Positions 2,908-13,171 of a DNA stretch of 13,215 nucleotides are shown piece by piece. Source of the DNA: Aquificota bacterium (GTDB lineage: Bacteria; Aquificota; Aquificia; Aquificales; Hydrogenothermaceae); NCBI GenBank assembly GCA_013153765.1, contig JAADDT010000007.1, forward strand, positions 1 through 13,215, given 5' to 3'. Made by a program: the position numbers and the translations under genes. Position 1 is the stretch's first letter. Each line of letters begins with the position of its first letter. The notes below the pieces were generated by a model. That model saw nothing but the letters and a program-made list of their open reading frames with translations. It was not told the DNA's origin and did no database searches.

Positions 2908-3333
2908 ATGGCTTTACGGTTAGTAGCGTTGCTTACGGCGTTGCTTTCCACCGCATACGGACACGGTCTTCAGGTTCAGGTAAAACAGGATAGGGCGGTG
3001 GTAATCCATATAAAATACGAGGAAGGTCAGCCTTTCTCGTTCAAGGAATACACCATTTACCACTCACAGGAGCCGGAAAAACCCTTTGCCGTCGGCAAGA
3101 CGGACAGGTACGGCAGAGTATCCTTCCTTCCTGACAGGGCAGGAAAGTGGATACTTAAAGCCTTCGGCGAGGACGGACACGGCGTAGTGAAAGAGATAAA
3201 CATAGACGGTAGTATGATAGGAACACAGGCATCGGGACAGGACAGGCTTTTAAAAGTCCTTACCGGCGTGGCTGTTATTATTGGATTTTTTGGAGCAGTA
3301 GGAATACTAAGAAAAAAAAGATGGGCATTATAG
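2908..3333 (+). CDS. nikL: NikL-like auxiliary protein of the nickel ECF transporter
   Basis: This 141-residue protein has an N-terminal hydrophobic signal or anchor (residues 2-17), an extracytoplasmic beta-rich region (about 20-105) and a single C-terminal membrane helix (about 115-134) followed by RKKRW, which places the tail in the cytoplasm. The TDRYGRVSFLP and DGHG segments resemble carboxypeptidase-regulatory-like beta-sandwich domains found in NikK/NikL accessory proteins. The gene sits 27 bp upstream of nikM, the usual place for the small extra subunits (NikL, NikN, CbiN) that Group I nickel/cobalt transporters need. If a signal peptidase cuts after A-Y-G (16-18), the mature protein starts with His19. 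The family assignment comes from topology and context more than from a strong motif; a CbiN/NikN analogue is the main alternative. The ATG is preceded by AAGGA at a fitting distance. Confidence 0.6.
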   Translation: MALRLVALLTALLSTAYGHGLQVQVKQDRAVVIHIKYEEGQPFSFKEYTIYHSQEPEKPFAVGKTDRYGRVSFLPDRAGKWILKAFGEDGHGVVKEINIDGSMIGTQASGQDRLLKVLTGVAVIIGFFGAVGILRKKRWAL

Positions 3334-3360
3334 GACGGGACACATTAGAGCAGGACGGAT

Positions 3361-4002
3361 ATGCACATACCGGACGGTTTTATTTCTCCTAAAGCTTACG
3401 TACCGGCTTACGTGATAGCCGGCGGGCTGTGGATATACGGATTTAAACAGCTAAAGAGCAGGCTTGACGAAAAAACACTGCCGTTTATTGCTGTCATTAC
3501 GGCGTTTTCCTTTGCTGTTTCACTCCTTGCAGTACCACTGCCGGGAGGCACTTCAGGACACCCTGTCGGCGTCGGTATGCTGTCCGTAATATTCGGATAC
3601 TGGATTGCGTTCATCTCCCTTTCCCTTGTCTTTTTCCTTCAGGCAGTCCTGCTTGGGGACGGCGGCATAACCACACTTCCGATAAACGCACTTTCAATGG
3701 GATTTGCAGGGGGACTTACAGCACACATCGTTTACAGGCTTACAAGAAGGATTAACGAAAGGATAGGTCTATTCATTGCAGGCTGGTTTTCCGTGGTAGT
3801 AGCGTCGCTTATAGTTGCGTTCATTTTAGGGATACAGCCTGTAATAGACCACTCTCCGGACGGGAAGCCACTTTTCTTCCCGTTCGGGCTTGAAATAACC
3901 CTGCCTGCGGTGGTAATACCCCATACCCTTATAGGGATTATAGAAGGGATAATGACCGTAATAGGTGTTGAGGCTTACAGGAGTTTAAAGGTTGAGGGAT
4001 AG
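3361..4002 (+). CDS. nikM: Nickel-specific ECF transporter S component NikM
   Basis: NikM is the membrane subunit (213 residues, about seven helices) that binds Ni2+ at the outer face of the inner membrane. The N-terminus is MHIPDGF, the hallmark of NikM/CbiM, where the amino group of Met1 and His2 coordinate the metal. A third ligand His is found at residue 67 in PGGTSGHPVGVG, the same number as in the studied thermophile NikM. These residues make metal transport firm. Nickel rather than cobalt is inferred from the MHIPDG start and from nikR, hypB and hydrogenase next door. AGGA lies 5 nt before the ATG. The start must be exact, because Met1-His2 is part of the site. The end overlaps nikQ by 11 bp. 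Confidence 0.93.
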   Translation: MHIPDGFISPKAYVPAYVIAGGLWIYGFKQLKSRLDEKTLPFIAVITAFSFAVSLLAVPLPGGTSGHPVGVGMLSVIFGYWIAFISLSLVFFLQAVLLGDGGITTLPINALSMGFAGGLTAHIVYRLTRRINERIGLFIAGWFSVVVASLIVAFILGIQPVIDHSPDGKPLFFPFGLEITLPAVVIPHTLIGIIEGIMTVIGVEAYRSLKVEG

Positions 4003-4531
4003 GATAACCGCACTGGCTTACTTAACGGTTATGGTTATGCTTACGGCTGTCCATCAGGTAGAGTTCTACCTTGCGGTGCTGTTCATTACTGCCTTGCTGA
4101 GCGGTAAGGAGTTTTTCAGGCTTATGAAAAGGAGCGTATCGGCTGTTTTACTGTTCAGCACGGCAGTAAACCTGTCCTATCTGGCTGTGCACGGACTTGA
4201 CTGGCACTACCTTCTCCTGCTTAACCTCCGTGTTATTGATATGACCTTCCTGACACTGCTGTTCATAAGTAAGGTAAACCTGTTCAGGCTTTTGGGATTT
4301 TCAAAATCCCTCACGTACCTGCTGGTTGTGTCTTACAGCCAGATATTACTTTTCAGAAAGTACTACGGCGAGCTTACAATGGCACTTAAAAGCAGGAGCA
4401 TAAAAAAACCGACCCTGAAGGAGCGTATAAACTTCCTCAGGTCAGCAACGGGCTTTTTCATAAGAAAATCTGTTGAAAACAGTCAGGAAATATCCCTTGC
4501 GATGAAATCACGAGGTTTTTTCCTTACTTAA
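3992..4531 (+). CDS. nikQ: Energy-coupling transmembrane T component NikQ (CbiQ/EcfT family)
   Basis: NikQ links the ATPase to NikM in the nickel ECF transporter. The 179 residues contain several hydrophobic helices up to about residue 122, then an amphipathic cytoplasmic region with two copies of the EcfT coupling motif, ALKSRS (131-136) and AMKSRG (170-175), whose central Arg contacts the ATPase. The start is a TTG at 3992, chosen because AGGAG lies 8 nt upstream inside nikM; the next ATGs (codons 14 and 16) lack such a site and would remove part of the first helix. Most CbiQ/NikQ proteins are longer (around 220-260 residues), so this one is compact: it stops four residues after the second motif. 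An intrinsic terminator follows. Confidence 0.86.
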   Translation: MRDRITALAYLTVMVMLTAVHQVEFYLAVLFITALLSGKEFFRLMKRSVSAVLLFSTAVNLSYLAVHGLDWHYLLLLNLRVIDMTFLTLLFISKVNLFRLLGFSKSLTYLLVVSYSQILLFRKYYGELTMALKSRSIKKPTLKERINFLRSATGFFIRKSVENSQEISLAMKSRGFFLT

Positions 4532-4576
4532 CACCCCTCTACCACCTACTTCTCTCCCCCCTCCCCCCTCGTAAAT

Positions 4577-4605
4577 CCCCCCGCAACGGGGGGCTTTTTT
4601 GTTTT
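4577..4605 (+). terminator. Intrinsic terminator after nikQ
   Basis: A perfect 7-bp G+C stem, CCCCCCG (4577-4583) with CGGGGGG (4587-4593) and a 3-nt CAA loop, is followed by CTTTTTTGTTTT. The 45 bp upstream (4532-4576) are C-rich and almost free of G, with two further C6 runs (4556-4561, 4563-4568). It separates nikLMQ from nikO, so the ATPase gene is probably transcribed mainly from its own promoter, with read-through possible. Confidence 0.88.
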
Positions 4606-4607
4606 AA

Positions 4608-4616
4608 TGTTATAAT
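4608..4616 (+). promoter_or_regulatory. Extended -10 promoter of nikO (leaderless start)
   Basis: TGTTATAAT at 4608-4616 is a perfect extended -10 element (TGn-TATAAT). No -35 can be seen, as the matching position falls in the G-run of the terminator stem. Transcription would start around 4622-4624, on or next to the nikO ATG at 4624, so the mRNA would have no leader and no ribosome binding site. Confidence 0.62.
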
Positions 4617-4623
4617 TTTGGTT

Positions 4624-5358
4624 ATGGTAGAGCTGAACAACGTCTCCTTTTATTATAAAGAAAAAAAAGCTATTGAAAACATTACCTTTTCTGTCAATCG
4701 GGGGGAAAAGGTAGTGATATTAGGGATAAACGGCAGTGGTAAATCCACCCTTTTGAAGATTGTAGACGGTCTCATATTCCCTCAGGAAGGCACTTACAGG
4801 TATAAGGGGGAGGAAATTACGGAAAAAAAGCTGAAGGACCCGGAATTTAACAAAAAGTTCAGAAAAGAAGTGGTGATGCTTTTCCAAAATCCGGACACTA
4901 TGATATTTAACCCGACGGTTTTTGACGAGATAGCCTTCAGCCTTAGACAGCTTGAGATACAAGACGTGGAAGAAAAAGTTCACTACTGGGCTGAAAAGCT
5001 GGGCATATCCCACCTGCTTGACAGGTCTCCCTTCCAGCTGAGCGGTGGTGAAAAACAGAAGGTATGCCTCGCATCACTGCTTTCAATAGAGCCTGAGCTA
5101 CTACTACTTGACGAACCTGTGGTAAACCTTGACCCCCGCTCCGCATGGTGGCTTATAGACTTTTTAAAAGGGCTTGACATAACAATAATAACAACAACCC
5201 ACAACCTTGACCTTTCGGTTGAGCTGGGCAGTAGAGGGCTTCTCCTTTCGGAAGACCACCGCCTCATATACGACGGTTCGTTAAAAGAGCTTATTGCCGA
5301 CAGGGAAAAACTCCTTCAGGCTAACCTGATATACCCTAAAACCTGTTTAGGAGGTTAA
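4624..5358 (+). CDS. nikO: Nickel ECF transporter ATP-binding protein NikO
   Basis: NikO is the cytosolic ABC ATPase (244 residues) that powers nickel uptake with NikM and NikQ. All motifs are present: Walker [10 protein letters not shown] (34-42), Q-loop FQNPD (Q88), signature LSGGEKQ (139-145), Walker B LLLLDEP with D163/E164, D-loop NLDP, and the switch His193 in TTTHN. FQNPD followed by TMIF is typical of CbiO/EcfA proteins. I chose ATG 4624; an in-frame TTG at 4618 would add two residues, but it lies between the -10 and the expected transcript start, and neither start has a ribosome binding site. nikR begins 2 nt after the stop, so the two are co-transcribed. Only one ATPase gene is seen, so a homodimer is likely, as in other NikO/CbiO systems. 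Confidence 0.93.
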
Positions 5359-5360
5359 CG

Positions 5361-5777
5361 ATGGGGGGAAAGATGGTAAGGCTGTGTATTACCGTCCCTG
5401 AAGAACTCCTTAAATTCCTTGACGAAAAGGTGGTAAAAAAGGGCTACCCTTCCCGTTCCGAGTTTATACGGGATTTAATAAGGGAAGTGGCAGTGGAAGA
5501 AAAGTGGAAAAACCAAAAAGGGGAAGTTGTAGGCGTCCTTACAGTCATATACGACCACCACCAAAGGGAGCTTACCCAAAAGATGATAGAAATACAGCAC
5601 AGCAAATACGTGAATATACTGTGTACAAACCACGTCCACCTTGACCACCACAACTGCCTTGAAACCATAATAATAAAGGGCAGTCCTGCAGAAATAGAAA
5701 GTATTGCGGTAAAAATAGCCGGACTGAAGGGCGTAAAGTTCGCAAAACTTACCAGAACAGCAAAGGTAGAAATATGA
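5361..5777 (+). CDS. nikR: Nickel-responsive transcriptional regulator NikR
   Basis: NikR (138 residues) is a tetrameric repressor that binds DNA when loaded with Ni2+. The N-terminal ribbon-helix-helix domain is residues 5-46 ([17 protein letters not shown], then [13 protein letters not shown]). The C-terminal ACT-like domain holds the full square-planar nickel site: His80 from one chain with His91, His93 and Cys99 of the other, in [12 protein letters not shown]. The spacing is identical to the studied enterobacterial protein (76/87/89/95) shifted by four. AGGAGG stands 6 nt before the ATG. Being encoded inside the transporter cluster and directly before hypB, it probably controls nikLMQ, nikO-nikR itself, and possibly hydrogenase genes. 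The likely operators are the dyads listed at 2868-2894 and 10423-10450. Confidence 0.96.
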
Positions 5778-5780
5778 AAA

Positions 5781-5817
5781 CTCCTGCTGTATCTTAATTA
5801 GTACAAACCGGCAGGAG
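5781..5817 (+). promoter_or_regulatory. Hairpin that can mask the hypB ribosome binding site
   Basis: CTCCTGC at 5781-5787 is the exact reverse complement of GCAGGAG at 5811-5817, which contains most of the hypB AGGAGG (5813-5818). An inner 4-bp stem TGTA (5788-5791) with TACA (5802-5805) stacks directly on the 5' arm, leaving a 10-nt loop and a 5-nt bulge. It fills nearly the whole 46-nt gap after nikR. No U-run follows, so it is not a terminator; translational control of hypB is the inference. Confidence 0.5.
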
Positions 5818-5823
5818 GCAGTA

Positions 5824-6561
5824 ATGTGTAAGGACTGTGGCTGTTCAATCACCGACCACCACCACAAGGAAAATCCGGCTTTAAAGGACAGGAAAACCGT
5901 ATCTGTAATAACGAAAATACTGGACAGAAACGACAGACAGGCTGAAAGCAACAGGGCACACTTTGACAGCCACGGCATACTTGCCGTAAACCTGATGAGT
6001 TCACCCGGGGCAGGGAAAACAACACTCCTTGAGAAAACAATAGACCTTCTGCCTGAAGGGATAAAGATAGGCGTGATAGAAGGGGATTTGGAAACAAACA
6101 GAGATGCGGAAAGGATAAGGGCAAAGGGCGTTCCCGCTTACCAGATAACCACCGGACAAGCCTGCCACCTTGATGCCTTTATGGTTCATCAAGGGATACA
6201 CCACCTTCCCCTTTCCCAGCTTGACATCGTTTTCGTTGAAAACGTCGGAAATCTGGTCTGTCCCGCCTCCTACGACATAGGGACACACATTAACGTGGTT
6301 CTCCTTTCCGTCCCTGAAGGGGACGACAAACCTGCCAAATATCCGGTAATGTTCAGGTCTGCCGACCTTCTGCTGATAACAAAGACCGACCTGCTTCCCT
6401 ATTTTGACTTTTCCGTTGAAAAGGCTGTGGAGGAGGCAAGGAGGCTTAACCCGAAGGTTGACGTTCTAACCGTCTCCACAAAAACAGGTGAAGGTATGGA
6501 AGACTGGATAAAATACCTCCAGCTAAAGTCCGCACTCAGAAAAACCTCCGTCAGCAGATAA
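5824..6561 (+). CDS. hypB: Hydrogenase nickel incorporation GTPase HypB
   Basis: HypB (245 residues) is the cytosolic GTPase that, with HypA, delivers Ni2+ into the hydrogenase large subunit. The N-terminus MCKDCGC carries the CxxCGC high-affinity metal motif found in some HypB proteins, followed by only three His, so it lacks the long His store seen in others. The G domain has the P-loop SSPGAGKTT (G62-T67 core), EGDLETNRDAERI, and TKTD as the base-recognition motif. The second, GTPase-domain metal site is complete: C114-H115 in GQACHLDA and C146 in NLVCPA, with the usual 32-residue separation. AGGAGG lies 5 nt before the ATG. No hypA is in the window. It bridges the nickel uptake genes and the hydrogenase genes. 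Confidence 0.96.
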   Translation: MCKDCGCSITDHHHKENPALKDRKTVSVITKILDRNDRQAESNRAHFDSHGILAVNLMSSPGAGKTTLLEKTIDLLPEGIKIGVIEGDLETNRDAERIRAKGVPAYQITTGQACHLDAFMVHQGIHHLPLSQLDIVFVENVGNLVCPASYDIGTHINVVLLSVPEGDDKPAKYPVMFRSADLLLITKTDLLPYFDFSVEKAVEEARRLNPKVDVLTVSTKTGEGMEDWIKYLQLKSALRKTSVSR

Positions 6562-6643: not shown

Positions 6644-7888
6644 ATGGGACTTTCCGAAATAGAACAACTCAGGGCTTTATTCACAAAACCTACAAACTAC
6701 ATAAACACAAACAAAGGGAAGGAATACTACGACAGCCTTTACAAAAAGATGGAAAAAAGGCTATCAGAACTGAAAAAACAGAAGCCGCTAAGGGAAGATG
6801 AAATCAGGTTTGAGGAATACCTGAAGGTATGGGAGCTGACCAGAAGGGACTTCCTCAAATGGGCATCTGCCACAACCGCAATGCTGATGCTACCACCCCA
6901 GTTTGAACCGCTGGTAGCACAGGCGGCGGAGGTTATGAACAGAATTCCTATCGTTTGGATAAACATACAGGACTGTGCAGGGAACACGGAAGCACTGCTT
7001 AGAAGTGCATCACCTACGGTTGACGAGCTTATACTGGAATACCTGTCTGTAGAATACCACGAGGTAATAATGGCCGCCGCCGGAGATCAGGCTGAGGAAA
7101 ACCTCCAGAGGGCGGTGAAGGACTTTGACGGTAAGTATCTGCTTTTCGTTGAAGGCTCCATACCTGTAGGTATGCCTGAAGCGTTTACCATAGGCAGACA
7201 CCCTAAAACCGGCGTTGAACACGTTAAACACCTTGCAGAGCATTCGGCGGCTGTTATAGCCGTCGGCTCCTGTGCGGCGTTTGGTGGCGTCCCTGCGGCA
7301 CACCCTAACCCTACGGGAGCCGTAGGCGTTATGGACGTGGTAAAGGGCAAGCCGATTATAAACATACCTGCCTGTCCTGCAAACCCTGCAAACATCACGG
7401 GAGTAATAATCCACTACATACTTACAGGTGAAATTCCCGAGCTGGACAGCCTTTTAAGACCGAAGTTCGCATTTGGATACAGGATACACGACAACTGTGA
7501 AAGGAGAGCACACTTTGATGCTGGGGAGTTTGTTGAGGAATGGGGGGACTTTGGGGCAAAAAACAACTTCTGCCTTTATAAAATGGGCTGTAAGGGACCT
7601 TTCACCTTCAATAACTGTTCCATAATCAGATATAACGAAGGGACTAACTGGCCTATAGGCGTTGGAAGGGGCTGTATCGGTTGTTCAGAGCCTAACTTCT
7701 GGGACGTTTACGCCACGGAAAGACCTGTGGCGGACGCACCTATACAACCGCCGGCAGGAAGGGGCGTTGAGGCTACAGTTGACCAGTTCGGTCTTGGAAT
7801 ACTTACAGCCGCCGCCGTCGGAATAGGAATACACGCCTTGGCAAGTGCTTTAGCCGGAAAAAGGGACGGCGAAAAGGAAGAAGAGTAA
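6644..7888 (+). CDS. hyaA: Group 1 [NiFe] hydrogenase small subunit, Tat-exported, with variant proximal-cluster motif
   Basis: This 414-residue electron-transfer subunit passes electrons from the active site through three iron-sulfur clusters to cytochrome b. A Tat motif TRRDFLKW (66-73) with a hydrophobic stretch and VAQAAE cleavage region follows an unusually long, charged 65-residue extension. Distal-cluster ligands H282, C285, C310, C316 and medial ligands C325, C344, C347 are all present. For the proximal cluster, C111, C210 and C244 are present, but the motif reads DCAGNTEALLRS, with N114 where the usual CxxC has its second Cys. The extra Cys pair of oxygen-tolerant six-Cys enzymes is also absent (GG at 214-215). 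A C-terminal hydrophobic helix (about 378-402) with a charged tail anchors it in the membrane. AGGAGG lies 6 nt before the ATG; the large-subunit gene follows after 14 nt. Confidence 0.95.
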   Translation: MGLSEIEQLRALFTKPTNYINTNKGKEYYDSLYKKMEKRLSELKKQKPLREDEIRFEEYLKVWELTRRDFLKWASATTAMLMLPPQFEPLVAQAAEVMNRIPIVWINIQDCAGNTEALLRSASPTVDELILEYLSVEYHEVIMAAAGDQAEENLQRAVKDFDGKYLLFVEGSIPVGMPEAFTIGRHPKTGVEHVKHLAEHSAAVIAVGSCAAFGGVPAAHPNPTGAVGVMDVVKGKPIINIPACPANPANITGVIIHYILTGEIPELDSLLRPKFAFGYRIHDNCERRAHFDAGEFVEEWGDFGAKNNFCLYKMGCKGPFTFNNCSIIRYNEGTNWPIGVGRGCIGCSEPNFWDVYATERPVADAPIQPPAGRGVEATVDQFGLGILTAAAVGIGIHALASALAGKRDGEKEEE

Positions 7889-7902: not shown

Positions 7903-9666
7903 ATGGGCAAGCATCTGGTAGTTGACCCGATAACGAGGATAGAAGGGCACTTAAGGATAGAAGCCATACTTGACGACAACAACGTGATAGTGGACGCTTA
8001 CAGCTCGTCAACAATGTGGCGGGGAATAGAAATAATAATGAAAGGCAGGGACCCGAGGGACGTTCCACTGCTTGCGATGAGAATATGCGGCGTGTGTACA
8101 GGAACGCACTACTACACTTCAACCCAGACTGTAGAGCACGCCTTGGGCATAGTTCCGCCTAAAAACGCCAGACTGGTTAGAAACCTGCTTCAAGGTTCAC
8201 TATACATACACGATCACGTGGTTCACTTTTACCACCTCCACGCACTTGACTGGGTGGACGTGGTCTCGGCACTGGAGGCTGACCCTGCAAAAGCCTCAGA
8301 CGAGGCTAAAAAATGGGCAAACATGCTTACAGACCCGATAACAGGAGAGACCATACAGCCTTGGAATGCGGGGGAAGGAACCTTCAGGGCAGTTCAGGAA
8401 AGGCTGAAAAAGTTCGTCAAGGCAGGCAGGCTGGGACCTTTCGCCAACGCATACTGGGGCAACAAATCCTATAAACTTTCACCTGAGCAAAACCTTGTGG
8501 CTGTCTCCCACTACCTTGACGCACTGGATATCCAGAGGGAGATGGCAAAGCTGATGGCAATATTCGGCGGTAAAAATCCACACCCACAATCGCTGGTCGT
8601 CGGGGGAGTTACCTGCGTTCAGGACATTAAAAACCCTGCAAGGCTGGGACAGTTTGAAAGCCTTTTAAGGCTGTCAAGGGAGTTCATATACAGGGCTTAC
8701 CTGCCGGACTTACTTATGGCGGGAGCTGTTTATGCTGACGAAGCACTGTCAGGCGTAGGCAGGGGACTTGGGAATTACATGGCTTACGGTGATTTTCGTA
8801 TGGACGACAACCCTTGGTATAAGGGAAAATTATTATTTCCACAGGGGCTTGTCCTGAACATGGATTTATCAACCGTTTACGACATAGACCAGTCAAAAAT
8901 AACGGAGGACGTGACCCACAGCTGGTACGAATACAAAGGGACTGACAAACCATTACACCCGTTTGAAGGTCAGACAAACCCTAAATACACCGGCTTCAAA
9001 CCCGACGGCACGTTAGACCCTAAAGGCAAGTATTCCTGGATAAAATCTCCTATTTACGACGACCACAGAGTTGAGGTTGGACCACTTGCCAGAATGATCG
9101 TGGGCTACGCAAGGGGAGACGAAAGGATAAAGCACTACGTTGACTGGTTGCTGAAATCGGGAAACCTTCCCACACAGGTTTTATTCTCCACCGTAGGCAG
9201 AACAGCCGGAAGGGCTATAGAAACAGCAATAATGGTTGACGTTATGAAAGAATGGCTTGACGAACTGGCAAGGAACGTTGCTTCAGGGGATTTAAGCACT
9301 TGGACGGATTATGACTTTGAAAGTCTTACAAAGGGAAACGAGCTGAAAGGATACGGTCTTACGGAAGCACCCCGGGGAGCATTGGGACACTGGATAAGGA
9401 TAAAGGACGGTAAGGTTGAAAACTATCAGGCGGTAGTCCCATCAACGTGGAACGGGGCACCACGGGACTACAAAAACAGGATGGGAGCTTACGAAGCCTC
9501 CCTGATAGGAACTAAAATGGCTAACCCGGACCAGCCACTTGAGATACTGCGGACTATCCACTCCTTTGACCCGTGTATCGCCTGTGCCGTCCACGTGATA
9601 GATGCAAAAGGCAGGGAGCTTGGCGTTTACAAGGTTGAGCCTGTTGGCGGAGCCTGTCTCCTATAA
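7903..9666 (+). CDS. hyaB: Group 1 [NiFe] hydrogenase large subunit
   Basis: This 587-residue catalytic subunit splits H2 at a NiFe(CN)2CO centre. The N-terminal L1 motif is RICGVCTGTH (Cys62, Cys65, His69) and the C-terminal L2 motif is DPCIACAVH (Cys558, Cys561, His564), so all four nickel-binding Cys are present. The 23 residues after His564 (VIDAKGRELG to the end) are the peptide removed by the maturation protease after nickel insertion. The start MGKHLVVDPITRIEGH is typical, and AGGAGG, overlapping the small-subunit stop, precedes it. It has no signal peptide of its own and should cross the membrane together with the small subunit. The intact ligands mean that the full Fe(CN)2CO assembly path must work in this cell. 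Cytochrome b follows after 17 nt. Confidence 0.98.
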   Translation: MGKHLVVDPITRIEGHLRIEAILDDNNVIVDAYSSSTMWRGIEIIMKGRDPRDVPLLAMRICGVCTGTHYYTSTQTVEHALGIVPPKNARLVRNLLQGSLYIHDHVVHFYHLHALDWVDVVSALEADPAKASDEAKKWANMLTDPITGETIQPWNAGEGTFRAVQERLKKFVKAGRLGPFANAYWGNKSYKLSPEQNLVAVSHYLDALDIQREMAKLMAIFGGKNPHPQSLVVGGVTCVQDIKNPARLGQFESLLRLSREFIYRAYLPDLLMAGAVYADEALSGVGRGLGNYMAYGDFRMDDNPWYKGKLLFPQGLVLNMDLSTVYDIDQSKITEDVTHSWYEYKGTDKPLHPFEGQTNPKYTGFKPDGTLDPKGKYSWIKSPIYDDHRVEVGPLARMIVGYARGDERIKHYVDWLLKSGNLPTQVLFSTVGRTAGRAIETAIMVDVMKEWLDELARNVASGDLSTWTDYDFESLTKGNELKGYGLTEAPRGALGHWIRIKDGKVENYQAVVPSTWNGAPRDYKNRMGAYEASLIGTKMANPDQPLEILRTIHSFDPCIACAVHVIDAKGRELGVYKVEPVGGACLL

Positions 9667-9683: not shown

Positions 9684-10376
9684 ATGTATAAAAGAGTAAA
9701 AAGAATGACCGCAACAATGCGGATTATACACTGGATAAACGCAGTATCCATACTTGCGGCTGTTATTACAGGTCTTTACATAGGACACCCTTACTACCAG
9801 ACCCTTATTTCAGAGCCGGCTGTCCACAAGTACGTGATGGCTTACAACAGGTGGATACACTTTATAGCCGCCATACTCCTTGACGTTACCTCCATCGTAA
9901 TCGTTTATTTGTACTTCTTCAGCAGGTTTGAAAAGCCGATAAAAAAGGTAATTCCCACACCACAAAACGTAAAAGAGTTTTTTGAGGTATTTATAAACCT
10001 TATCACCCTAAACAGAAGGAAAAACTTTGACAGTTCAAAGCTGGACAGCTTTAACGCAGTTTACTTTACTATACTCCACCTGTTATTACTGCTTATGCTG
10101 TTTACAGGACTGCAGATGTATGTATGGGGACTGTACCACGGCGAGTCCTCCATAGGAGCGTGGTGGCCTTGGCTTTTACACGTGGCTACAGACTGGACAC
10201 TATGGATATTCGGTGGTTTCCACGGAGTAAGGATAGTCCACCACATAACAATGTGGATAATTATAGTCTGGACAGTGTTCCACGTTTATTATCAGGTCTG
10301 GAGGACTATATTCTGGCGTGAAGGTGATATGGCAATAGTATTCGGCGGATACAAGTTTAAAAAGGTGGAAAAATAA
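9684..10376 (+). CDS. hyaC: Hydrogenase cytochrome b subunit (HyaC/HupC family)
   Basis: This 230-residue di-heme membrane protein anchors the hydrogenase and passes its electrons to quinone. Four hydrophobic helices are visible (about 17-34, 57-77, 125-148 and 185-206). Candidate heme ligands are His16 in RIIHW, His59 in NRWIHF, and His186/His187 and His200 in VHHITMWIIIVWTVFHVYY, the pattern of the family. The end, REGDMAIVFGGYKFKK, matches the usual cytoplasmic tail. GGAGG lies 8 nt before the ATG. It is third in the structural operon. A stem-loop overlaps its stop codon and may end part of the transcripts. The enzyme is therefore a respiratory uptake hydrogenase at the membrane. Confidence 0.94.
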   Translation: MYKRVKRMTATMRIIHWINAVSILAAVITGLYIGHPYYQTLISEPAVHKYVMAYNRWIHFIAAILLDVTSIVIVYLYFFSRFEKPIKKVIPTPQNVKEFFEVFINLITLNRRKNFDSSKLDSFNAVYFTILHLLLLLMLFTGLQMYVWGLYHGESSIGAWWPWLLHVATDWTLWIFGGFHGVRIVHHITMWIIIVWTVFHVYYQVWRTIFWREGDMAIVFGGYKFKKVEK

Positions 10377-10467: not shown

Positions 10468-11040
10468 ATGGAAAAGATAGGAGTTGTGGGCGTCGGGAAC
10501 GTCCTTTTTAAAGACGAAGGTATAGGCGTTTTTGCCGTAAAATACCTTCAGGAAAACTACACATTCTCACCGGAGATAGACCTGATAGACGCAGGCACAC
10601 TTGGATTTGGTCTGATGGGATACCTGCACGAATACGACCACATCATACTGATTGATACCCTGTCTGTAAACGATAAAGCCGGTTCCGTTTACAGGCTAAC
10701 ACCTGACCAGCTTTCCGGACTTTCCTCTTACCACCAGACGGCTCACGAGGTTGAAGTCCTCCAAATGCTGGAGCTTACGCCACTGACGGGAAAGATGGCT
10801 GACACGGTGGTAATAGGCGTCGTTCCCGAGCTGATTGACAGGTCTGAAATAGGGCTTACAGAAACACTTGAGGGACAGCCTTTCAAAACGGTAATCCACC
10901 AGATACTAAAGGAGCTTGAAAGGATAGGAGTAAGCCACAAAAAGGTAAAAAACTACACCCTGAAGGAAGTGGTTATGAAACATTTCGGTTCTTACAACGG
11001 TCAGCTTTCGGACAAGAGGATAGGCGATGAAAACACCTGA
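10468..11040 (+). CDS. hyaD: Hydrogenase maturation endopeptidase (HyaD/HupD/HybD family)
   Basis: This 190-residue cytosolic protease removes the C-terminal peptide of the large subunit once nickel is in place. It has the family opening GVGNVLFKDEGIGVFA, with Glu17, then DAGTLGFGLM, Asp63 in LIDTL and His93 in YHQTAHEVE; these are the three nickel-recognition residues of the HybD fold (Glu, Asp, His). Length is slightly above the usual 160-ish residues because of a basic C-terminal tail of about 30 residues. Its gene follows the hydrogenase structural genes, so its substrate is almost certainly the large subunit encoded at 7903-9666. The ATG is preceded by GGAG. The last 14 bp overlap the start of the HypF-like gene, implying translational coupling. 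Confidence 0.94.
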   Translation: MEKIGVVGVGNVLFKDEGIGVFAVKYLQENYTFSPEIDLIDAGTLGFGLMGYLHEYDHIILIDTLSVNDKAGSVYRLTPDQLSGLSSYHQTAHEVEVLQMLELTPLTGKMADTVVIGVVPELIDRSEIGLTETLEGQPFKTVIHQILKELERIGVSHKKVKNYTLKEVVMKHFGSYNGQLSDKRIGDENT

Positions 11041-13171
11041 AGAAGTGGGCTTGAAAATATCCTTTGAATACCTGAAAGGTAATGACACCCTCCTTCAAAT
11101 GGTAAAGCAGATAGCAGACCGGCACGGAATAAGGGGATTTCTGACGAAAAAGGAAGATAAGGTTGAAATAATAGTATCTGCACCGCTGGAAAAACTGCAG
11201 GGCTTTTCAAAGGAGCTGGGAGAACTTCTGCCTTACTCACTTTTTATGTCCGATGCTTCCGTTGAAACGGTAGAGCCAATATCACCTTTCATCACAGAAG
11301 ACTTTAAGATAAAAACAGACCTGAACCTGCTACCCCAAAACCTGTCAGTCTGTCCTTCCTGCCTGAAGGAGCTGTTTGACAGGGAAGGCAGAAGGTATCA
11401 CTTTCCCTTTATTTCCTGCAATTACTGTGGAAGCCAGTACGCATACCTCCACAGGTATCCCTTCACGAGGGAAAACACCCAGTTCAGGTTTTTCAACACC
11501 TGCAACGACTGTAAAACTGAAGTTGAAAACAAAAACAGCTTCAGACACGGCTACCCGCTTACAGCCTGCCACAACTGTTTTACCCATTTTTACCTGAAAA
11601 ACAAAAACGCGGAAAAATACGGCTTTGACGGTGAAAAAACCGCACTGCTTTTCGGCGAAGGGGCAGGGCTGTTAAAGGAAGGAAAAATTCTAAAAATTTA
11701 CACCCAGAACGGGACAAAGCTGATAGGTCTGATAAACGAAAAAAATCTATCCGCCTTAAGGGAAAACCTTTTTGAAAAAAGAAAACCTATAACCGTAATG
11801 TTTACCGGCTTTGACGTGCTGGACAGATACCTTGTCCTGTCCGAGCTTGAGAAAAAAGTGCTTGCATCACAGGAAAAACCTATCCTGTACCTGAAGCCTT
11901 CGGAAAACTTTAAGGAAAGAAACGCCGTATCACCCTTTGGTTTTATAAAGGCAAAACTGCCGGACACACCGCCACTGCTTATCCTTTCAGCTTACCTGAA
12001 GGAAAAGGGCGTTGATTTCGTTTTTATAGGGGATTTTCAGGAAAACGCCGTAGAGCTGATAGAGTTCCACATAGAGGCAGACCTGCCGGTGGTGAACCTG
12101 CAGGAGGAAACAACCTGCATCGTTATTGACAGCCACATAATCATAGAAAGCGGTGAAAAGGGCATTCTGCCGTCAATCGTAAAAAGTAAAAAAACGGGAA
12201 ACCTGTCCATAGCCGGCGAGTACGCCGCACTTGATTTGGGAGACGGAGAATACCTGATAGACAAAAAGGAAAAAATATTAAACCAGCTTGAAGACTTTGT
12301 GGACAGTATAAACAGCCTGTCAGTCCTTAACGGTCTGGAGGAGGAGGTAAAAACACCTTACAAAGAGAAGAAAAAGTTTTACGACTTTCAGGGGGCAGTC
12401 CTTTCCGTCCTTGGGGAGCATAACATACTGGAACAACCTGCGGCAGGTATTTACCTGTCAAAATATTCAGACCACAACATCATAGGCGTAAAATCACACA
12501 CCAGACCGTTTACTCCCGTAATTGAGGTAAAACCGTTAAGGCTTTACCCTGACCTGAAGCAGACAGTCCACTGGATAATCAAACAGATAGAAAGCCACTC
12601 GGAAGAGGGCAAAAGGCTTATTGCAAACTTTTCCCGCAAATATCCAGACCTTTACGGCAGGATTGGAAACTCCCTGTTGACGGAAAACTACAAACTGTCT
12701 TCAAACATAACGGCAGTATTCAACGCCGTTTCCTTCCTGCTGGAGACCTTTCCTTACGAAGATGCGGACTATTTTGAAGAGCCTTTCCTGTTTTTATCAA
12801 AGGAGGCTGTAAACTTTCAGGGAAAAAAGGGAGTAAGGATAGACTACCTCCTTGTTGAAGAAGGGGGCAGGTTTCTTTTAGACTGGAGGAAACTAATTCA
12901 GAGCGTCCTGTCGTATAAGCTGGCTGGAGCCGAAAAGGATATGGTGGCATTTTCCGTTCTGGAAGGCTTTGGAGACTGGATAATAAACCAGACCCTAACC
13001 ATATGTTCAAAACTGAAAATAGAAAACGTGGCACTGGCAGGGGATTTACTTACAGAGCCTATAACCGCCGGCAAGCTGATAAACGCATTGGGCAAGGAAA
13101 AAAACCTGTATTTAAACAGGAAGCTACCTGTTGACAGGCAGAACGTAGCCTTCGGCGGAATATTTGTCTAA
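11027..13171 (+). CDS. hypF: HypF-like protein with intact zinc fingers but eroded catalytic motifs
   Basis: The 714 residues align end to end with HypF, the carbamoyltransferase that makes the cyanide ligands of [NiFe] hydrogenase. Both zinc fingers are perfect: C109/C112/C131/C134 and C159/C162/C181/C184, each CxxC-x18-CxxC. The other domains keep the fold but not the chemistry. The acylphosphatase-like region (about 8-85) lacks the GFR Arg and the loop Asn (TKKEDKV where VRNDGDGV is expected). In the YrdC part, GLGGFHLACDA becomes TQNGTKLIGLI and TSGN becomes IGDF. In the Kae1-like part, the HHHAH metal motif becomes YDFQG (about 452-456), SGGVxxN becomes AGDLLTE (671-677), and NDGG becomes DRQN (703-706). 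It sits where hypF usually lies, just before hypC. The frame is uninterrupted, so it is not a decayed pseudogene. It may be a non-catalytic paralogue or a strongly diverged enzyme. Confidence 0.82.
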   Translation: MKTPEEVGLKISFEYLKGNDTLLQMVKQIADRHGIRGFLTKKEDKVEIIVSAPLEKLQGFSKELGELLPYSLFMSDASVETVEPISPFITEDFKIKTDLNLLPQNLSVCPSCLKELFDREGRRYHFPFISCNYCGSQYAYLHRYPFTRENTQFRFFNTCNDCKTEVENKNSFRHGYPLTACHNCFTHFYLKNKNAEKYGFDGEKTALLFGEGAGLLKEGKILKIYTQNGTKLIGLINEKNLSALRENLFEKRKPITVMFTGFDVLDRYLVLSELEKKVLASQEKPILYLKPSENFKERNAVSPFGFIKAKLPDTPPLLILSAYLKEKGVDFVFIGDFQENAVELIEFHIEADLPVVNLQEETTCIVIDSHIIIESGEKGILPSIVKSKKTGNLSIAGEYAALDLGDGEYLIDKKEKILNQLEDFVDSINSLSVLNGLEEEVKTPYKEKKKFYDFQGAVLSVLGEHNILEQPAAGIYLSKYSDHNIIGVKSHTRPFTPVIEVKPLRLYPDLKQTVHWIIKQIESHSEEGKRLIANFSRKYPDLYGRIGNSLLTENYKLSSNITAVFNAVSFLLETFPYEDADYFEEPFLFLSKEAVNFQGKKGVRIDYLLVEEGGRFLLDWRKLIQSVLSYKLAGAEKDMVAFSVLEGFGDWIINQTLTICSKLKIENVALAGDLLTEPITAGKLINALGKEKNLYLNRKLPVDRQNVAFGGIFV

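What the first reader, a model, noticed from the sequence alone, without database searches (positions are those of the whole stretch)
11027..13171. A HypF homologue that keeps its zinc fingers but has lost the signature residues of all three catalytic modules
Seen in sequence: two exact CxxC-x18-CxxC fingers, HypF-like order and length, and alignable blocks such as LPDTPPLLIL, ESGE, SSNITAVFNAV and VALAGDLL; yet the acylphosphatase Arg and Asn, the YrdC GxGG and SGN motifs, the Kae1-like HHxH metal site, SGGVxxN and NDGG are all replaced. Known: these residues carry carbamoyl-phosphate hydrolysis, carbamoyl-adenylate formation and transfer to HypE. Inference: this is either a pseudo-enzyme (scaffold, HypE-binding or regulatory partner) working beside a normal HypF, or the only HypF of the genome with a changed mechanism. 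The neighbouring large subunit has complete active-site ligands, so cyanide must still be made somehow. A conserved frame of 714 codons argues for selection.
Basis: partly seen in the sequence, partly recalled or inferred. Interest (0 to 1): 0.75.

Follow-up and report, generated by a model that had tools for sequence, protein, structure and literature searches.

The report
HydE, a catalytically dead HypF relative
The gene is the fifth member of a hydrogen-consuming enzyme's operon: an old copy of the cyanide-making helper HypF that has kept the shape and lost the active sites, and that travels with one type of hydrogenase, probably as its dedicated assembly partner, while in related genomes a normal HypF is there to make the cyanide.

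The parts
11027..13171 (+). hydE: degenerate HypF paralogue, 714 aa
   Evidence: ORF; family, tree and synteny
11039..11314 (+). acylphosphatase-like domain (residues 5-96), catalytic Arg and Asn replaced (L23, K41)
11336..11596 (+). double zinc-finger domain (residues 104-190), all 8 Cys kept
   Evidence: Pfam zf-HYPF; sequence
11597..12190 (+). YrdC-like domain (residues 191-388), KxR and SxN lost
12191..13168 (+). Kae1-like domain (residues 389-714), metal site and NDGG lost; D606, S626, S629, A633 conserved in HydE and not in HypF
6644..7888 (+). hydA, hydrogenase small subunit with a long leader before the twin-arginine motif (RRDFLKW at residue 67)
   Evidence: synteny; leader comparison
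7903..9666 (+). hydB, hydrogenase large subunit
9684..10376 (+). hydC, cytochrome b subunit
   Evidence: name by operon position (operon described in PMC4992972)
10468..11040 (+). hydD, maturation protein (protease: recalled); last 14 nt overlap hydE
5361..6561 (+). nikR-like regulator (5361-5777) and hypB (5824-6561)
   Evidence: names recalled from the sequence, no family search

Best explanation
The protein is HydE, the fifth product of the hydABCDE operon of one clade of membrane-bound group 1 [NiFe]-hydrogenases (group label recalled). It comes from an old duplication of HypF, kept the HypF architecture, lost the three catalytic sites, and has since been inherited and transferred as a unit with hydABCD. 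Canonical HypF (elsewhere in the genome) and HypE make the cyanide ligand. HydE acts without HypF chemistry as a maturation partner for its own hydrogenase. Shown here by computation: identity, fold, loss of sites, co-inheritance with HydB, purifying selection. From the literature: hydE is needed for hydrogenase activity in H. pylori. Inferred: that it works as a docking platform, most likely using the old HypF partner surface to bind HypE/HypCD or the HydB precursor so that the Fe(CN)2CO unit is delivered to this hydrogenase (about 0.4 for that partner choice).
For: Fold: full-length HypF match. Sites lost. Tree: 34 HydE rows against 28 HypF rows, SH-aLRT 100 on both sides of the split (one row that I had labelled HypF, L103:19156, is a second HydE by its operon place). 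Profile comparison without shared rows: six Helicobacter-like and kindred HydEs match the Hydrogenothermaceae family at 2.3e-41 over 480 columns but canonical HypF only at 45.6% probability; five Shewanella/Psychromonas HydEs 1.1e-29 over 554 columns against 2.1e-6 over 120 for HypF. Operon order hydA-B-C-D-E in most Campylobacterota and all five Shewanella/Psychromonas loci examined. Source names 'HydE' among relatives of one Campylobacterota member (P0168, P0269). Hydrogenothermaceae at least 90% complete (26 genomes): HydE in 14 of 14 with HydB of 72% identity or more, 0 of 12 without; 7 of those 12 have HypF over cut-off. HydB and HydE trees of 42 operons both split 21/21 with support 100 along the same line, and three genomes with two operons have one HydE on each side. 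HydE-bearing hydrogenases form one clade (30 rows plus L108; SH-aLRT 100); no HydE-like match in 30 genomes carrying outside hydrogenases. dN/dS 0.056-0.176 in 9 pairs, a tenth saturated. HypE keeps C-terminal PRIC in 23 of 24 rows read, the 24th from a frame-broken draft; HypFs of 12 HydE-bearing genomes keep the motifs. H. pylori hydE mutants lose hydrogenase activity, not rescued by nickel (PMC7695850; need for hydE also in PMC3120642).
Against: L108 (genome G121) has hydABCD followed directly by canonical hypF and no HydE found in the assembly, so HydE can be dispensed with. No interaction partner was shown. Operon position is not fixed: in P. marina (G080) hydE lies about 145 kb from hydAB; in L106, L111 and L236 it follows hydC, with hydD after hypF or not seen; L272 has hydE and hyp genes but no hydABCD match within the 14 kb read. 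With a profile of the Hydrogenothermaceae family alone, HydEs of Shewanella and Helicobacter-like genomes score no better than canonical HypFs, so their membership rests on place, trees and profile-profile comparison. The tree tool warned of long branches meeting. None of eight genomes picked for lack of a second match has HypF over cut-off (see Tried and rejected). H. pylori HydE itself was not fetched by name.
Confidence: 0.75

Rival explanations
1. HydE is a chaperone of the small subunit: it binds the long HydA leader and holds export back until the large subunit is mature, like HyaE/HybE-type chaperones (recalled).
For: All 57 small subunits with a readable motif that I assigned to the clade (48 with HydE in view, 9 without) have RRxFxK followed by W, with the motif at residue 38-87 of the longest frame; 25 outside have F, I or A there, and 23 of 25 have the motif before residue 36. 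[quoted passage not shown]
Against: Leader type and HydE arose on the same branch, so this is one coincidence, not independent support. L108 has the long leader and W but no HydE. Frame starts are upper bounds, and in about half of the clade rows a Met lies within 20 residues before the motif.
Confidence: 0.25
2. HydE is the only HypF of the genome and works by a changed mechanism.
For: The window's own assembly (70% complete) has no HypF or HypE match over cut-off; G088 (99% complete) has HydE and HypE but no HypF.
Against: 12 of 14 Hydrogenothermaceae HydE genomes at least 90% complete carry HypF over cut-off. In G088 hypE starts 57 bases from a contig end, on the side where its relative G083 has hypF about 2.5 kb further on; the window contig ends 44 bases after hydE. 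Losses hit all three catalytic modules.
Confidence: 0.03
3. HydE has a new chemistry or ligand site in the old scaffold, for instance at the HydE-specific conserved residues D606, S626, S629, A633 or at S71.
For: These are 88-99% conserved in 67 HydEs and differ from HypF.
Against: The same pattern fits a protein-protein interface; no cofactor motif was recognised.
Confidence: 0.12
4. A decaying pseudogene.
For: Loss of active-site residues; fast evolution (median end branch 0.35 against 0.081 in HydB).
Against: Open frame, dN/dS about 0.1 in relatives, kept across phyla and even where unlinked from the operon.
Confidence: 0.01

Closest known systems
HypF, carbamoyltransferase (TIGR00143; PDB 3vth, 3vti, 4g9i, 3tsp)
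   Same: Domain order, full-length fold, zinc fingers
   Different: No acylphosphatase Arg/Asn, YrdC KxR/SxN, Kae1 HxxH..D or NDGG; far below the family cut-off; linked to one hydrogenase clade
HydE of hydABCDE in Helicobacter and other Campylobacterota (not the radical-SAM HydE of [FeFe]-hydrogenases)
   Same: Operon position, homology over the length, tied to the same hydrogenase clade
   Different: The window copy keeps both zinc fingers; Shewanella and several Campylobacterota copies keep one pair of CxxC, and the Helicobacter-like ones none
HupK/HoxV, degenerate large-subunit paralogue used in maturation (recalled, no call)
   Same: A protein of the pathway turned into a non-catalytic maturation factor
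   Different: HupK derives from the hydrogenase large subunit, HydE from HypF

Membership tests
HypF (carbamoyltransferase) | Score over the NCBIfam TIGR00143 cut-off (466 bits) | tested here: not met
   162.3 bits
HypF (carbamoyltransferase) | Acylphosphatase catalytic Arg and Asn (recalled) | tested here: not met
   L23, K41
HypF (carbamoyltransferase) | YrdC KxR and SxN (motifs as given in PMC9654439) | tested here: not met
   L248/E250; D336/Q338 or a gap
HypF (carbamoyltransferase) | Kae1 metal motif HxxH..D (PMC9654439) and NDGG (recalled) | tested here: not met
   D453/F454/A457 and S478, RQNV
HypF (carbamoyltransferase) | Two Cys4 zinc fingers | tested here: met
HypF (carbamoyltransferase) | HypF fold over all domains | tested here: met
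HydE of hydABCDE | Directly downstream of hydD in the hydABC operon | tested here: met
HydE of hydABCDE | Homology to proteins named HydE and to the fifth gene in Helicobacter-like genomes | tested here: met
   hhalign without shared rows: 2.9e-66 over 503 columns with 18 rows, 2.3e-41 over 480 columns with 6 rows; names P0168, P0269 among relatives of the L229 member
HydE of hydABCDE | Homology to H. pylori HP0635 itself | not tested
   No named H. pylori genome was reached; three unnamed urease-positive genomes of about 1.5 Mb stand in
HydE of hydABCDE | Required for hydrogenase activity | not testable with these tools
   Literature passages only, for H. pylori
HyaE/HybE/HupK-type hydrogenase chaperones | Sequence or fold homology | not tested
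   Considered as functional analogues only

The most novel reading that the evidence does not exclude
HydE is a pseudo-HypF adaptor that couples the general Hyp cyanation machinery to one hydrogenase clade: it presents a dead copy of HypF's HypE-binding face to HypE/HypCD and at the same time recognises the HydB precursor or the long HydA leader, so that cofactor synthesis, insertion and export become dedicated to this enzyme. Helicobacter HydE, an orphan required gene, would be a stripped-down form of the same device.
Probability: 0.3. Interest if true: 0.78.

Novelty: new variant of a known kind. Interest (0 to 1): 0.62.

Why it matters
HydE is described as required for hydrogenase activity in H. 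pylori with unknown function (PMC7695850 passages, citing work of 2004). Showing that it is a dead HypF, with a Persephonella form that still has all domains, turns an orphan into a testable protein: partners, residues and a structural model can be predicted from HypF. It also adds a case, beside the recalled HupK, of a hydrogenase pathway protein recycled as a non-catalytic assembly factor, and it warns annotators, since some sources call these proteins HypF.

Tried and rejected
Sole-HypF reading: rejected on coexistence of HypF in relatives. Pseudogene: rejected on dN/dS.

HydE without HypF: eight genomes, picked because earlier searches had shown no full HypF, were checked and none has HypF over cut-off. 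G226, G122 and G169 show scraps of HypF that look like contig ends; in G276 and G126 hydE itself runs to a contig end; in G088 hypE does; the window's contig ends after hydE. G136, a 3 Mb draft with hypE, has hydE inside a contig and remains unexplained. G126 also has a 514-aa frame with weak HypF-like matches (C74) that I did not pursue.

HydB without HydE in Hydrogenothermaceae: G090, G091 and G094 (78-86% complete; G094 only an 80-aa HydB fragment); the G090 contig ends just after hydC and the G091 contig 1.9 kb after it. G093 has hydE, hydA and hydB broken into several frames, which looks like sequencing error; L234 has hydE in two frames. Three of the 26 genomes used for the co-occurrence count have 7-9% contamination (G067, G068, G072).

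Rows dropped: the first tree left out L099_18730, L099_20380 and L097. The mixed HydB tree used 30 of 42 HydE-positive operons. Two small subunits without a readable motif were left out of the leader count. Scores of the combined HydE profile are by construction for the rows it was built from, among them L096-L122; I therefore quote for those. The comparison of A2 with A1 shares rows and is not counted.

Literature: searches. No passage that I read links HydE to HypF; I read search listings and passages only, no whole paper, and the library lacks most subscription journals. Benoit 2004 and Shomura 2012 are not held.

Full report
Observation. Window 11027-13171 is an open frame of 714 codons that starts inside the last 14 nt of the upstream gene. 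It carries two exact CxxC-x18-CxxC fingers and aligns with canonical HypF from end to end (hhalign 100%, 674 columns, 21% identity). It scores 162 bits against the HypF cut-off of 466; in Pfam it passes the cut-offs of the HypF finger and, barely, of HypF_C_2, misses that of acylphosphatase, and shows no HypF_C. The catalytic residues are replaced or missing in all three modules: L23 and K41 in the acylphosphatase domain, L248/E250 and D336/Q338 (or a gap) in the YrdC domain, D453/F454/A457 and S478 plus RQNV in the Kae1 domain. The yardstick motifs of the YrdC and Kae1 sites are those stated in PMC9654439 (passages); the acylphosphatase pair and NDGG are recalled and were read off the canonical alignment. 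Of positions conserved in at least 95% of 28 canonical HypFs, the protein keeps 7/20, 14/27, 14/33 and 4/27 in the four domains, the zinc Cys all kept.

Identity. The close relatives found are 32 proteins at 42-64% identity, with source names of Persephonella, Hydrogenothermus and Aquificae where named; five canonical HypFs follow at E 4e-28 and weaker (only the 7,998 candidates sharing most words were scored). The genes before it are hydA, hydB, hydC and hydD, the operon of H. pylori hydABCDE described in PMC4992972 (passage). To test this I fetched 80 loci encoding relatives of the window's HydB. In Campylobacterota, Shewanella and Psychromonas loci a relative of the window protein stands in the operon, in most of them right after hydD, and a normal HypF often follows. 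Exceptions: in L106, L111 and L236 it follows hydC; L108 has none; L272 shows hydE and hyp genes but no hydABCD match in 14 kb. A profile of Hydrogenothermaceae members alone scores the longer Campylobacterota HydEs well above their own HypF (L114 343 against 171 bits), but scores HydEs of Shewanella and Helicobacter-like genomes no better than HypFs. For those, profile-profile comparison decides: six Helicobacter-like and kindred HydEs match the Hydrogenothermaceae family at 100% and 2.3e-41 over 480 columns, and canonical HypF only at 45.6% and 2.1e-4; five Shewanella/Psychromonas HydEs give 99.8% and 1.1e-29 over 554 columns against 89.3% and 2.1e-6 over 120. The window's form is the bridge. 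Names among relatives of one Campylobacterota member include 'hydrogenase biosynthesis protein HydE' (Caminibacter profundus) and 'hydrogenase related protein HydE' (Sulfurimonas gotlandica). The Helicobacter-like genomes are three unnamed, urease-positive ones of about 1.5 Mb, in which the order hydA-B-C-D-E ends in a 508-517 aa protein without CxxC pairs; that they are Helicobacter is my inference. H. pylori HP0635 itself was not fetched.

Evolution. A 62-row tree separates 34 HydEs from 28 HypFs with SH-aLRT 100 and a long stem (2.0 changes per column on the HypF side of a midpoint root); the tool warned that long branches meet, at the Shewanella rows and L103:19156, a row I had labelled HypF and which is a second HydE by its operon place. 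Trees of HydB and HydE from 42 operons split into 21 and 21 with support 100 in both, along the small-subunit type. Aliarcobacter vitoriensis (L099), L103 and G155 each hold two hyd operons, with one HydE on each side. Among 76 HydBs, the 30 with HydE plus L108 form one clade with support 100, apart from 45 others. A genome-wide search of 30 genomes carrying outside hydrogenases found no HydE-like match: 27 gave matches that I read as HypF (N-terminal part only, mostly in frames of 745-891 aa) and 3 gave nothing. The simplest reading is one gain with this hydrogenase clade, transfer with it, and at least one loss (L108, genome G121).

Co-occurrence. In the 41 Hydrogenothermaceae genomes searched, HydB of this kind (72% identity or more) is in 24, HydE in 21, all within those 24; the three without are 78-86% complete. 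Of the 26 genomes at least 90% complete, 14 of 14 with this HydB have HydE and 0 of 12 without. HypF is over the cut-off in 12 of those 14, split in G087 and not found in G088, and is over the cut-off in 7 of the 12 HydE-negative genomes. HydE therefore goes with the hydrogenase type, not with HypF. P. marina (G080; named from its contig length and P0030, recalled) keeps HydE although it lies about 145 kb from hydAB.

Selection. Nei-Gojobori dN/dS for HydE is 0.056-0.176 in nine pairs (a tenth is saturated), for canonical HypF 0.054-0.181 in six pairs and for HydB 0.011-0.058 in six pairs. One HydE and one HypF value rest on dS above 3 and are rough.

Function. PMC7695850 (passages) states that hydE has unknown function in H. 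[quoted passage not shown] PMC4992972 (passage) says HydD and HydE help localise the complex to the membrane, citing Benoit 2004, which is not held. HypE keeps its C-terminal PRIC in 23 of 24 Hydrogenothermaceae rows read, and the HypFs of 12 HydE-bearing genomes keep the catalytic motifs (10 by the patterns, the other two on reading). Cyanide synthesis therefore does not need HydE chemistry. I infer that HydE is a docking factor dedicated to HydABC; the old HypF face that meets HypE (PMC4506123, passage) is the natural candidate surface. A rival is the small-subunit leader: all 57 readable leaders that I assigned to the clade have RRxFxK followed by W and a long frame before it, against 0 of 25 outside with W; but leader and HydE arose on the same branch, and L108 has the leader without HydE, so this cannot decide.

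Verdict. The mechanism remains open between a Hyp/HydB adaptor and a leader chaperone.

Noticed in passing
window 6644-7888 and small subunits of related loci: Small subunits of the HydE-linked clade have the twin-arginine motif at residue 38-87 of the longest frame and a W right after it (57 of 57); 25 of 25 outside have F, I or A.
   Followed up: partly
L108 / G121:C59: hydABCD followed directly by canonical hypF, with no HydE found in the assembly: an apparent loss.
   Followed up: partly
L099, L103, and G155 (L239, L240): Two hyd operons in one genome, each with its own HydE; the two subtypes differ in both HydB and HydE.
   Followed up: yes
L243 (G080:C2, 797145-799265): hydE unlinked from hydAB by about 145 kb, next to an RtcB-like gene (name from memory).
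   Followed up: no
L107 / G093:C52: hydA, hydB and hydE all broken into several frames in one MAG, probably sequencing error.
   Followed up: no
L096, L098, L101-L103, L106, L111, L115, L117, L242 and others, upstream of hydA: A second small/large [NiFe] subunit pair (about 260-310 and 400-460 aa) often stands before hydA.
   Followed up: no
G126:C74, 3551-4792: A 514-aa frame with weak HypF-like matches beside the genome's HydE; possibly a further degenerate copy.
   Followed up: no
window 2908-5358: A nickel/cobalt uptake cassette (CbiM/NikM-like protein, membrane protein, ATPase; names from memory) precedes nikR, hypB and hydA.
   Followed up: no
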